DNA of 45,786 nt from Halioglobus sp. Lineage in GTDB: Bacteria; Pseudomonadota; Gammaproteobacteria; Pseudomonadales; Halieaceae. Shown here in pieces: positions 9,929-45,786 of the stretch. Numbering within the stretch: the stretch's first letter is position 1; every line of letters starts with the position of its first letter. The position numbers were made by a program, and so were the translations under genes. The notes beneath the pieces are model-generated. The model worked only from the letters and a program-made list of their open reading frames with translations. It was not told the DNA's origin and made no database searches. Location of the stretch: positions 1 to 45,786 of the forward strand of contig JAGRIK010000173.1 of the NCBI GenBank assembly GCA_020443325.1. The letters run 5' to 3'.

Positions 9929-9985
9929 TCCTCGCACACCCACCAATCCGATAACGCACGGAGACGGGTTTGGTTGCTGGCACGA

Positions 9986-10009
9986 ATTCTGCTTTACTCA
10001 AAGTAGAAT
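9986..10009 (+). terminator. Small hairpin after the Lgt-like gene
   Basis: The arms ATTCTGCTTT (9986-9995) and AAAGTAGAAT (10000-10009) pair over 10 positions, one of them G-T, around an ACTC loop. It lies 58 bases after the stop codon of the Lgt-like gene. No U-tract follows, so termination is only a possibility. Its right half also belongs to the outer arm of the larger inverted repeat that surrounds the element at 10041-10154. Confidence 0.35.
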
Positions 10010-10040
10010 GGCGCAGATTTAAGCACTGGTGCGGCACTGA

Positions 10041-10154
10041 GGCGGTAATTTGAATGCTATAGGGGTGGGACTGTGCGAGGCATGGATGCCGAGCTCAAGC
10101 CCCCATGGATGGGTTTACGGCGTGTCCCACCCCTATAGCATTCAAATTGCCGCC
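10041..10154 (+). repeat. Family 1 long-stem element, copy 1 (twin GGA-loop core)
   Basis: The arms 10041-10071 and 10124-10154 are complementary at 30 of 31 positions. Between them lies a 52-base core (10072-10123) that folds into two small hairpins. GGCATGGATGCC is at 10079-10090 and CCCATGGATGGG at 10102-10113; both present CATGGATG. The core matches copy 3 (43480-43590, read on the minus strand) at about nine in ten positions, although the arms have nothing in common. The bases next to the core, GGGAC/GTCCC, are conserved. The element lies between the Lgt-like gene and glyK. What it does is unknown; the loop pattern fits CsrA/RsmA sites. Confidence 0.85.
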
Positions 10155-10215
10155 GTCTCGAGGCATAAGTCCGCGCCAGTCTACTTAGAGCCAGAATAAC
10201 CGTGATAGGTAACCC

Positions 10216-19390: not shown

Positions 19391-19615
19391 CGGCTTGTTC
19401 ACAACCCCTTCATGTGACATCTCGGCTTGGTTTCGCCTTGGATTGCAACGAGATGGATTTTTCTCGTAGCGCTGTCGGGGGTTTGGTCGTGGGCGACGGG
19501 CTCGCACCCCAGCAGGCGTTTCAGTCGCTCCACGTGATTCGCTTTGTGAAACGCCTACTGGGGCACAAGCCCTGCATCTCAATACTACGGCACGACTTGC
19601 GACGGACGTTAGATT
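19391..19615 (+). repeat. Family 2 structured element, copy A
   Basis: This about 225-base element starts directly after the GGDEF stop codon. In order it holds a 7 bp hairpin (CATCTCG at 19418-19424 with CGAGATG at 19449-19455), then nested stems. The outer ones include CGTAG/CTACG and GGGCT/AGCCC. The inner one is a 17 bp stem (19507-19523 with 19547-19563, one mismatch). The inner loop GTCGCTCCACGTGATTCGCT is almost identical in copies B and C. It ends with ACGTTAGATT (19606-19615), shared with copy B. It carries no gene. It may be a structured RNA made from the end of the upstream transcript, or a palindromic DNA element. Confidence 0.85.
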
Positions 19616-19649
19616 CTTAAGTTCCGGGTTTAAGATTTTTAGAGTTAGC

Positions 19650-19773
19650 CGAATGGTAGGTACTGAGGTGACGAATAGAAATGTGTTTCTCAGTCGCTCC
19701 CGGAGTGCCGGACCAACGAATTCGCTTGGTGAGAAACACATTTTCCATCCACAACCTCAGTGCATACCATTCG
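19650..19773. repeat. Family 2-related hairpin D with different arms
   Basis: Between copies A and B lies a double hairpin. The outer arms are CGAATGGTA (19650-19658) and its complement (19765-19773), continued by ACTGAGGT and ACCTCAGT (19754-19761). The inner arms AAATGTGTTTCTCA (19679-19692) and its complement (19730-19743) are a perfect 14 bp stem. The inner loop begins GTCGCTCC and ends ATTCGCTTGG, exactly the ends of the loop in copies A, B and C. It has about 14 extra bases in the middle. The arms are unrelated to theirs. Confidence 0.75.
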
Positions 19774-19810
19774 ACTAGATAAAAAAAGACGTTCCATTCA
19801 TGCTTCTCAC

Positions 19811-19991
19811 AATCTAACGTTCGTCACAAATCGTGCCGTAGCATTGGGATGCAGGGCTCGTACCCCAGAGGGCGTTTCACCAAGCGAATCACGTGGAGCG
19901 ACTGAAACGCCCTCTGGGGTGCGAGCCCGTCGCCCACGACCAAACCCCCGACAGCGCTACGAAAAAACTCGTCTCGTTGCTATTCAAGGCG
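19811..19991 (-). repeat. Family 2 structured element, copy B (5-prime truncated)
   Basis: Read on the minus strand, this copy begins directly after the TAG stop (19992-19994) of the NUDIX gene. It matches copy A from CGCCTTG onward, so it lacks the first about 45 bases including half of the CATCTCG hairpin. Its main stem (19863-19879 with 19903-19919) is a perfect 17 bp. It reads AGAGGG where copy C reads AGTAGG, with the opposite arm changed to match. The outer stem GGGCTCG/CGAGCCC is also perfect. It ends with ACGTTAGATT at 19811-19820. Copies A and B form a large inverted repeat. Confidence 0.85.
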
Positions 19992-40164: not shown

Positions 40165-40553
40165 CGTTAATACTCGCAAGAAAGAACGACACCCTAGTAC
40201 CCCGCTAAGAAATTCGATCCGACGATGCTGATCTTGAGACACTGCCGCTTACTGGGCGGGAGCCTGAGAGATAGAGTTGCGGGCGGGACCGTGTGGCGAC
40301 AGGACGTCGCCACCCGAGCCTGCACATGGATGTGCGCTTTTTGGCGTGTCACGCCCGCAACTCTATCTCTCAGGCGCTCAACACGTGGCAGATTCCAATC
40401 CGAACCAAGACTAATGATACAAGTGCCTACGACAACTTGAGTAGAAAGCGACACTCGGAATCGCCGCTTTTTTACTCAGCTGTCCTTTCACACTTTCCCC
40501 CGAGCGAGTATCATACCGCCTCTTTTTCAAAGCCTTCTTCCAGACAAAATCCA
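40165..40553 (+). promoter_or_regulatory. prmA-dusB gap with candidate dusB-fis promoter
   Basis: The 389-base gap contains the family 1 element described separately and no gene. After it, a T-run at 40468-40473 follows only a weak stem. TATCAT at 40509-40514 is a possible -10 box, 40 bases before the dusB start, without a good -35. In E. coli the dusB-fis promoter is strongly growth-regulated and repressed by Fis, but AT-rich Fis sites cannot be assigned by eye here. Confidence 0.35.
40262..40375 (+). repeat. Family 1 long-stem element, copy 2 (divergent core)
   Basis: The arms 40262-40289 and 40348-40375 pair at 27 of 28 positions. The 58-base core holds two hairpins. GTGGCGAC-AGGAC-GTCGCCAC is at 40293-40313 and GCACATGGATGTGC at 40322-40335. 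Their loops match those of copies 1 and 3 (CAGGACG and CATGGATG), while their stems are changed on both sides, so the loops rather than the stems are conserved. The GGGAC at the inner edge of the left arm and GGCGT before the right arm are also shared. It lies between prmA and dusB. Confidence 0.8.
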
Positions 40554-43479: not shown

Positions 43480-43590
43480 GGCTGTTGAGCGGTTGTGGCC
43501 TGTCGGGACACGCCGTGAACCCATCCATGGGGGCTCGAGCTCGGCGTCCTGCCTCGCACGGTCCCGACAGGCCACAACCACTCAACAGCC
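43480..43590 (-). repeat. Family 1 long-stem element, copy 3 (inverted)
   Basis: The arms 43480-43509 and 43561-43590 pair at 29 of 30 positions. Read on the minus strand, the 51-base core nearly equals that of copy 1. It carries GGC-AGGAC-GCC (43543-43553) and CCCATGGATGGG (43520-43531), separated by a GAGCTCGAG spacer. The GGA loops are thus on the strand opposite to purH and purD, unlike the two other copies. The arms share only the GGGAC edge with copies 1 and 2. It lies in the 194-base purH-purD gap. Confidence 0.85.
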
Positions 43591-45612: not shown

Positions 45613-45786
45613 CAGCGTGTTGAAAACCTTGATCTGGCATCTCGGCTTGTTTTCGCCTTGAATAGCGACGAGATGAATTTTCTCTTAGCGCTGTCGAGGG
45701 GATGGTCGTTGGCGACGGGCTCGCACCCCAGTAGGCGTTTCAGTCGCTCCACGTGATTCGCTTGGTGAAACGCCTACTGGGGTACG
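45613..45786 (+). repeat. Family 2 structured element, copy C (cut by window edge)
   Basis: This copy begins directly after the coq7 stop codon and continues to the window end. It matches copy A throughout: GTGTTGAAAACC resembles the copy A start, the CATCTCG hairpin is at 45638-45644 and 45669-45675, and the GGCGACGGGCTCGCACCCC segment is shared. The main stem 45726-45742 with 45766-45782 is a perfect 17 bp with AGTAGG/CCTACT. The loop is the conserved 23 bases. The 3-prime part seen in copies A and B lies beyond the window. Confidence 0.85.

What the first reader, a model, noticed from the sequence alone, without database searches (positions are those of the whole stretch)
10041..10154. Family 1 elements carry paired CsrA/RsmA-like GGA hairpin loops
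All three family 1 cores (10072-10123, 40290-40347 and 43510-43560 on the minus strand) fold into two small hairpins with A(N)GGA in the loop. Copy 1 has CATGGATG twice, copy 2 has CAGGACG and CATGGATG, and copy 3 has CAGGACG and CATGGATG. The hairpin stems differ (GGCA/TGCC against GTGGCGAC/GTCGCCAC; CCCA/TGGG against GCACA/TGTGC) while the loops stay the same. CsrA/RsmA dimers bind two such loops at once. The elements could therefore be dispersed CsrA sponges or regulatory sites in transcripts. That CsrA binds them is inference.
Basis: partly seen in the sequence, partly recalled or inferred. Interest (0 to 1): 0.85.

Follow-up and report, generated by a model that had tools for sequence, protein, structure and literature searches.

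The report
Mobile repeats carrying paired GGA hairpins
The three elements belong to a large, patchily spread family of short repeats whose RNA form shows two GGA hairpin loops, the kind of site that the regulator protein CsrA binds; this matches a known but functionally untested RNA family called TwoAYGGAY, and here it looks like something that moves around genomes.

Summary
Each element is a 28-31 bp near-perfect stem topped by a three-way junction with two GGA-loop hairpins. They belong to a dispersed family with at least 67 places in this genome, found patchily in relatives and many named Gammaproteobacteria. Window copy 1 just reaches Rfam's cut-off for TwoAYGGAY (43.6 against 43 bits, permissive search); copies 2 and 3 do not. 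CsrA binding was already proposed in print for TwoAYGGAY (PMC4333381).

Three results go further. GGA stays in the first loop of 92 of 113 loci chosen without using that hairpin, on 71 different stems. Mispaired arm positions are G.T rather than A.C on the GGA strand (101 against 30), pointing to RNA of that strand. One subfamily has terminal inverted repeats and 8-bp target duplications (4 of 61 copies pass), and copies 1 and 2 have empty sites in a relative. I read them as transposed RNA elements acting as CsrA/RsmA decoys. Binding and transcription are untested; csrA was not found in this 90% complete assembly.

The parts
10000..10186 (+). whole inserted unit of copy 1 (about 187 nt) with imperfect end repeats AAAGTAGAATGGCGC / GCGCCAGTCTACTT
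   Evidence: absent in relative G016, where the conserved sequence just upstream (GGCACGAATTCTGCTTTACTC) is followed by other sequence; exact ends inferred by eye
10041..10154 (+). copy 1: 31-bp stem plus three-way-junction core
   Evidence: TwoAYGGAY 43.6 bits, gathering score 43
10079..10090 (+). copy 1 hairpin 1, GGCATGGATGCC, GGA in loop
10102..10113 (+). copy 1 hairpin 2, CCCATGGATGGG, GGA in loop
40262..40375 (+). copy 2 (second subfamily): 28-bp stem plus core
   Evidence: site empty in the six related genomes compared, G016, G008, G013, G003, G014 and G009
40293..40313 (+). copy 2 hairpin 1, GTGGCGACAGGACGTCGCCAC
40322..40335 (+). copy 2 hairpin 2, GCACATGGATGTGC
43480..43590 (-). copy 3: 30-bp stem plus core, between two genes that look like purH and purD (names recalled from the protein sequence)
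   Evidence: orthologous, partly decayed copy in G016
43543..43553 (-). copy 3 hairpin 1, GGCAGGACGCC
43520..43531 (-). copy 3 hairpin 2, CCCATGGATGGG (in the MFE of this copy the loop is widened to eight unpaired bases)

Best explanation
The elements are TwoAYGGAY-type RNA elements carried as non-autonomous mobile repeats (MITE-like, about 185 nt). Copied into intergenic DNA, they are expressed on the GGA strand as a long stem with a three-way junction that presents two A(N)GGA loops, usually 22-26 nt apart. The pair of loops most likely binds one CsrA/RsmA dimer, so tens of copies act together as a dispersed CsrA decoy. Shown here: the structure, its conservation, the dispersal, the target duplications in one subfamily, and the strand-specific asymmetry in the arms. 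Inferred: that they are transcribed, that CsrA binds them, and that the result is titration rather than local regulation.
For: Structure and stability. Two-sided changes in 27 of 45 pairs, 97% of cells paired, in 17 copies. GGA is the commonest loop triplet: 92 of 113 loci selected only by hairpin 2 and its 3' side, on 71 distinct stems; 98 of 113 have A(N)GGA there. 179 of 258 copies fold with two GGA loops, against 3 of 258 on the reverse strand and 3 of 258 with shuffled cores (a further 53 shuffled cores have one). 191 of the 205 copies with exactly two A(N)GGA sites have them 22-26 nt apart. G.T exceeds A.C in the arms: 101:30 in 93 of 110 pattern-selected loci with an arm search that rewards only Watson-Crick pairs, 29:6 in this genome, 33:3 and 16:4 in relatives by locus strand. 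The asymmetry holds when both neighbouring genes run the other way (52:5 in 46 copies). TIRs and 8-bp TSDs in subfamily 2. Empty sites. csrA in 23 of 23 TwoAYGGAY-positive genomes against 46 of 57 others, Fisher one-sided p 0.018, not corrected for kinship or genome size.
Against: No csrA was found in this assembly (90% complete), although 34 of the 36 relatives searched have one. No sigma-70-like promoter was found around copy 1. Only 4 of 61 copies, all of subfamily 2, pass the joint TIR and TSD test. No transposase partner was found. The orthologue of copy 3 in G016 has 10 of 30 arm positions not Watson-Crick paired (8 of 30 not even G.T) and an insertion in the core, so a single copy can decay. 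Structure selection could be on single-stranded DNA, and a strand-specific C-to-T bias could mimic the G.T excess. Most loci were found with patterns or a model that contain one or both GGA, so conservation figures other than one search are inflated to an unknown degree.
Confidence: 0.55

Rival explanations
1. A selfish DNA repeat whose hairpins act on single-stranded or extruded DNA, for example as a recognition structure for a transposition protein; the GGA loops are read by that protein and CsrA is irrelevant.
For: Patchy distribution: 12 of 36 relatives with model R1, 23 of 369 class genomes with RF01731 under strict filters. TIRs and TSDs. A 70-nt repeat in G026 with the same ends and an 8-bp TSD but no core. 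Outward-facing pairs (26 of 30 neighbours closer than 700 nt). Arms unrelated between many copies with near-identical cores (65 of 136 pairs of 17 copies have arms under 45% identical, cores 92% on average).
Against: DDE-type 8-bp duplications imply double-stranded transposition (established knowledge). The 70-nt element suggests that the ends suffice without the core. G.T over A.C asymmetry and the tandem GA step favour RNA, though single-stranded DNA is not excluded.
Confidence: 0.25
2. Cis-regulatory CsrA sites: each copy controls the mRNA in which it lies (copy 1 lies between a conserved promoter-like sequence and a kinase-like gene).
For: Copy 1 ends about 60 nt upstream of the 10216-11151 gene and lies downstream of a sequence conserved in G016. 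The element's 3' side lies nearer to a gene than its 5' side: median 50.5 against 157 nt, and 84 against 289.5 nt in Xanthomonadaceae loci.
Against: Strand relative to genes is unbiased in this genome (17 same/same, 19 opposite/opposite of 54 with both neighbours), and contexts between convergent genes outnumber those between divergent genes 25 to 5 of 88 in named loci. Copy 3 is antisense to both flanking genes.
Confidence: 0.1
3. Ordinary REP-like elements acting as terminators or mRNA 3'-end stabilisers.
For: Intergenic, near gene ends, stable hairpins.
Against: No terminator-like site was found around copy 1. GGA-loop conservation and the junction are unexplained by this.
Confidence: 0.07

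Closest known systems
TwoAYGGAY RNA (Rfam RF01731)
   Same: Two hairpins with AYGGAY-like loops on a poorly conserved outer stem; copy 1 scores 43.6 bits against a gathering score of 43; L048, another copy of this genome, scores 46.2. Several of the genomic places hit by our model R1 are also hit by RF01731. A tandem GA step in the hairpin 1 stem, reported for TwoAYGGAY, is visible here (by eye).
   Different: No RF01731 match is listed for copies 2 and 3. The passages I read on the family do not describe dispersal, mobility, arm turnover or outward pairs.
CsrB/CsrC, RsmX/Y/Z type CsrA-sponge RNAs
   Same: Several hairpins with GGA loops; CsrA/RsmA as inferred ligand.
   Different: Those are usually one or few independently transcribed RNAs with many sites each (recalled). 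Here two sites per unit are spread over tens of loci. I did not search for CsrB or Rsm RNAs in these genomes beyond the Rfam scan of the window.
MITEs and REPINs
   Same: Short, non-autonomous, dispersed, intergenic; TIRs and 8-bp TSDs in subfamily 2; pairs in inverted orientation recall REPINs (recalled).
   Different: Units of about 185 nt with a conserved RNA core; no autonomous element found; a RAYT partner was not searched for.

Membership tests
TwoAYGGAY RNA (RF01731) | covariance-model score at or above the gathering score (43 bits) | tested here: met
   copy 1: 43.6 bits, when a 201-base stretch was searched with permissive filters; not listed in the default-filter run nor, where its locus L007 was searched at E 1. 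Copies 2 and 3: no RF01731 match listed, so the feature is not met for them
TwoAYGGAY RNA (RF01731) | two hairpin loops of AYGGAY type | tested here: met
   copy 1 has two ATGGAT loops; copies 2 and 3 have one ATGGAT and one AGGAC loop, so only one of the AYGGAY type
CsrA/RsmA-binding sponge RNA | paired A(N)GGA sites in hairpin loops | tested here: met
   241 of 258 copies have at least two A(N)GGA in the core; 179 of 258 fold with two GGA loops; 92 of 113 in the less biased set
CsrA/RsmA-binding sponge RNA | binds CsrA/RsmA | not testable with these tools
   none; proposed in print for TwoAYGGAY
CsrA/RsmA-binding sponge RNA | is transcribed | tested here: inconclusive
   only indirect: G.T over A.C asymmetry on the GGA strand; no promoter found by consensus around copy 1
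CsrA/RsmA-binding sponge RNA | host encodes CsrA | tested here: inconclusive
   csrA not found in this assembly (90% complete); found in 34 of 36 relatives and in 29 of 29 genomes at least 90% complete and at most 5% contaminated
MITE | terminal inverted repeats and target-site duplication | tested here: met
   subfamily 2 only: 4 of 61 copies of this genome (two exact and two 7/8 TSDs), against 0 in 19 of 20 mismatched-flank controls and 2 in the other. None of the three window copies passed
MITE | empty sites in relatives | tested here: met
   copy 2: empty in six of six relatives compared, of the 17 loci that brought from relatives; copy 1: empty in the one relative compared, G016. Copy 3 is present in G016
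MITE | autonomous partner supplying a transposase | tested here: inconclusive
   end-repeat searches were followed up for about a dozen places, which were elements, a core-less 70-nt repeat, solo ends or chance matches in genes; the other places were not opened

The most novel reading that the evidence does not exclude
A transposable element that amplifies CsrA/RsmA decoys. Each insertion adds two binding loops on an RNA made from the element itself, so bursts of transposition would raise or lower free CsrA and could rewire a global regulator lineage by lineage. TwoAYGGAY as a whole would be this kind of mobile decoy, not a conventional sRNA.
Probability: 0.35. Interest if true: 0.8.

Novelty: new variant of a known kind. 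Interest (0 to 1): 0.58.

Why it matters
TwoAYGGAY has been a candidate RNA since its listing in 2010 (PMC2864571), and I found no test of its function in print. If it is a transposed CsrA decoy, it links mobile DNA directly to the dosage of a global regulator. It would also explain why the family is patchy, multi-copy and not tied to particular genes. The G.T/A.C comparison also gives a simple way to separate RNA-level from DNA-level constraint in palindromic repeats.

Tried and rejected
Rfam at default settings over the window gave no match, and a permissive search that included the locus of copy 1 did not list it; its TwoAYGGAY match appeared only in a permissive search of a 201-base stretch. 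At default filters L054 and L102, which had scored at or above the cut-off elsewhere, were also not listed, so the filters lose true members. The many microRNA families listed lie far below their gathering scores and reflect any long hairpin. Plasmid and phage collections gave no match to the one query tried in each; one IMG/VR contig matched a pattern.

A possible autonomous transposon in G016 (two end repeats 1.3 kb apart) turned out to be two separate elements flanking a gene that looks like cysE (recalled). A shared spacer between outward-facing pairs was looked for by eye and not seen; in several Stenotrophomonas loci the spacer ends are themselves palindromic. A REP/RAYT origin was considered only from memory and not tested.

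Compensatory arm changes were rejected as proof of RNA on their own, because palindromes can be corrected by template switching; hence the G.T/A.C test. My palindrome finder accepts G.T pairs on the locus strand, so relatives were also split by strand; the excess holds both ways (33:3 and 16:4).

Rows dropped before counts: of 124 model matches in 81 loci (80 of the 118 stretches, and one viral contig), three reverse-strand duplicates were dropped, leaving 121. The 258 distinct elements come from 67 places here (64 kept), 84 palindromes in 60 fetched stretches of relatives (78 kept) and those 121 (116 kept), after length filters. 24 of the 258 were left out, and 17 of 110 out of the first row, for lack of a clear arm. 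Model hits in this genome are a lower bound: three more copies, on contigs C119, C158 and C295, turned up through the nested insert. The class survey scored at most seven candidates a genome with strict filters and missed G000 itself, so 23 of 369 is a lower bound, and the 57 genomes used as 'without', of 346 unmatched, may include carriers.

Full report
Observation. The three elements are present as described. Their arms are 28-31 nt and 96-97% complementary. On the GGA strand they fold at -77.0, -79.9 and -84.5 kcal/mol, ten to twelve standard deviations below shuffles. Copy 1 has two ATGGAT loops; copies 2 and 3 have one AGGAC and one ATGGAT loop.

A family in the genome. A strict pattern for the core's second hairpin finds 17 copies and none in the reversed control. 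Aligned, 97% of cells form pairs and 27 of 45 pairs change on both sides; all 500 shuffles and all six slid registers do worse on every measure. The two-sided changes lie mostly in the outer arms (25 of 31 pairs), with two in the hairpin 1 helix and none in hairpin 2. A covariance model built from them finds 67 distinct places once reverse-strand duplicates are removed. Three subfamilies differ in core details (by eye). One of the 67 lies wholly inside a called gene; a few overlap called gene ends, and the gene caller is my own simple script. Arms differ wholesale between many copies with near-identical cores: among the 17 strict copies, 65 of 136 pairs have arms under 45% identical, and their cores average 92% identity (part of the core was in the search pattern).

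Spread. Of 36 related genomes 12 have model matches, with 0 to 77 matches per genome within one genus (reverse-strand duplicates included). A contig of 390,205 bases in relative G020 has the length of one of Chromatocurvus halotolerans, a species of the Halieaceae, which would put the window's genome in that family; this is inference. Neighbours closer than 700 nt are mostly outward-facing: 26 of 30 pairs; but 44 of 85 elements with enough flank have no such neighbour.

Identity. Rfam's TwoAYGGAY (RF01731) matches a copy in G020 at 45.2 bits. In whole genomes it matches 9 of 36 relatives and this genome at E 0.01 or better, 7 relatives and this genome over the cut-off, and 0 of 14 control genomes. 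In this genome it passes the cut-off at C360 and C226, both also found by our model. Window copy 1 scores 43.6 bits against a cut-off of 43; for copies 2 and 3 no TwoAYGGAY match is listed. In a sample of 369 genomes of the class, 23 match at E 0.001 or better and 15 are over the cut-off; strict filters missed this genome there, so these are lower bounds.

What is in print. I read passages, not whole papers. PMC4333381 proposes from motif matches that TwoAYGGAY RNAs sequester CsrA, and cites two tandem GA steps in a stem. PMC2864571 lists the motif as probably an RNA and probably not cis-regulatory. PMC11701678 reports two added covarying pairs. PMC11661157 discusses loop stabilities. PMC4383904 describes the CsrA motif annotation in Rfam. 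Of full-text searches, those for TwoAYGGAY (7 papers, 5 listed, 4 of them opened) and RF01731 (4 papers) showed me no title or passage on dispersal or mobility; searches on CsrA with repeats, MITEs or extragenic palindromes, on Stenotrophomonas repeats and on long inverted repeats (no paper) brought no title that describes this, seen as listings only apart from passages of PMC9788540 and PMC4383904. Most subscription papers are not in that library.

Is GGA really conserved? Models and patterns that contain GGA favour it, so I took loci chosen only by hairpin 2 and its 3' side and looked at the hairpin upstream. GGA lies in the loop of the best upstream hairpin in 92 of 113, on 71 distinct stems; the next triplets (ATG 67, GAT 60) come largely from the same ATGGAT loop. 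Of the 21 others some still hold a GGA hairpin that was not the best one, and some, such as three Methylotuvimicrobium loci, do not. In the wider set, 179 of 258 copies fold with two GGA loops, 40 with one and 39 with none; two such loops occur in 3 of 258 on the reverse strand and in 3 of 258 with shuffled cores. In 191 of the 205 copies with exactly two A(N)GGA sites these lie 22-26 nt apart, median 23. From memory, CsrA dimers bridge sites at about such distances.

RNA or DNA? A palindrome that decays without strand preference should show as many A.C as G.T mismatches. On the GGA strand there are 263 G.T and 51 A.C in 234 of 258 copies. With an arm search that rewards only Watson-Crick pairs, pattern-selected named loci give 101:30 (93 of 110), this genome 29:6 (63 of 63), and relatives 33:3 and 16:4 by locus strand. 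By gene context the counts are 52:5 where both neighbours run the opposite way, 36:8 where both run the same way, 23:5 between convergent and 13:4 between divergent genes. This is what selection on RNA of the GGA strand predicts, and it does not depend on read-through from neighbours. Single-stranded DNA or a strand-biased C-to-T mutation could give the same sign, and related copies are not independent.

Mobility. Subfamily 2 units are 184 nt (longer with nested inserts), end in repeats like GGTAGTGGCTCAGTTTGAA, and some carry 8-bp duplications: CGATTGCT and AAATAAAC exactly, two others at 7 of 8; that is 4 of 61 copies, against 0 in 19 of 20 mismatched-flank controls and 2 in one. By eye, relatives show further cases, among them a 70-nt repeat with the same ends and no core. 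The interval that holds copy 2 (genes that look like prmA and dusB, recalled) lacks it in all six relatives compared, and copy 1 is absent in G016. Copy 3 has an orthologue in G016 that keeps both GGA triplets, but 10 of 30 arm positions are no longer Watson-Crick pairs, against 1 of 30 in the window, and the core has an insertion. So copies can be old, and some decay.

CsrA. The csrA gene is in 34 of 36 relatives and in 29 of 29 well-assembled genomes, but was not found in this assembly. In the class sample, 23 of 23 TwoAYGGAY-positive genomes have it against 46 of 57 others. Several of the 11 lacking it are small or incomplete genomes, so this is weak support.

Verdict. These are members, or close sisters, of TwoAYGGAY spread as mobile repeats. 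The best mechanism is a dispersed CsrA/RsmA decoy with two loops per unit. That CsrA binds the family was already proposed in print; the mobile dispersal, the arm turnover and the strand-specific asymmetry are what this work adds.

Noticed in passing
L050, L051, L056, L057, L070, L073, L074, L076-L078 and others: A nested insert of about 23 nt (GGGYCTGCCCCTSTTTATGGGYA) sits after GGA in loop 1, loop 2 or both; its core pattern has 20 places in this genome against 1 in the reversed control. Two of them (C72, C142) lie in a different sequence context.
   Followed up: partly
window 19407-19991 and 45627-45786: A second repeat, unrelated by eye, with inverted arms of 133-160 nt at 90-91% complementarity.
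   Followed up: no
window about 9973-9999: TTGCTGGCACGAATTCTGCTTTACTC upstream of copy 1 is largely conserved in G016 and resembles a sigma-54 promoter (recalled consensus).
   Followed up: no
L345 (G026:C17), 70-nt repeat: A palindrome with the same ends as subfamily 2, no TwoAYGGAY core, and the 8-bp duplication AGTAGTTT (by eye): possibly the minimal mobile unit.
   Followed up: partly
L315, 7443-7546 and 7771-7876: An outward-facing pair in an IMG/VR viral contig.
   Followed up: no
L217, L221, L250 and other named loci; G305, G399, G194: Where two elements lie close together outside this genome they usually face outward, with 9-335 nt between them. Why is unexplained.
   Followed up: partly
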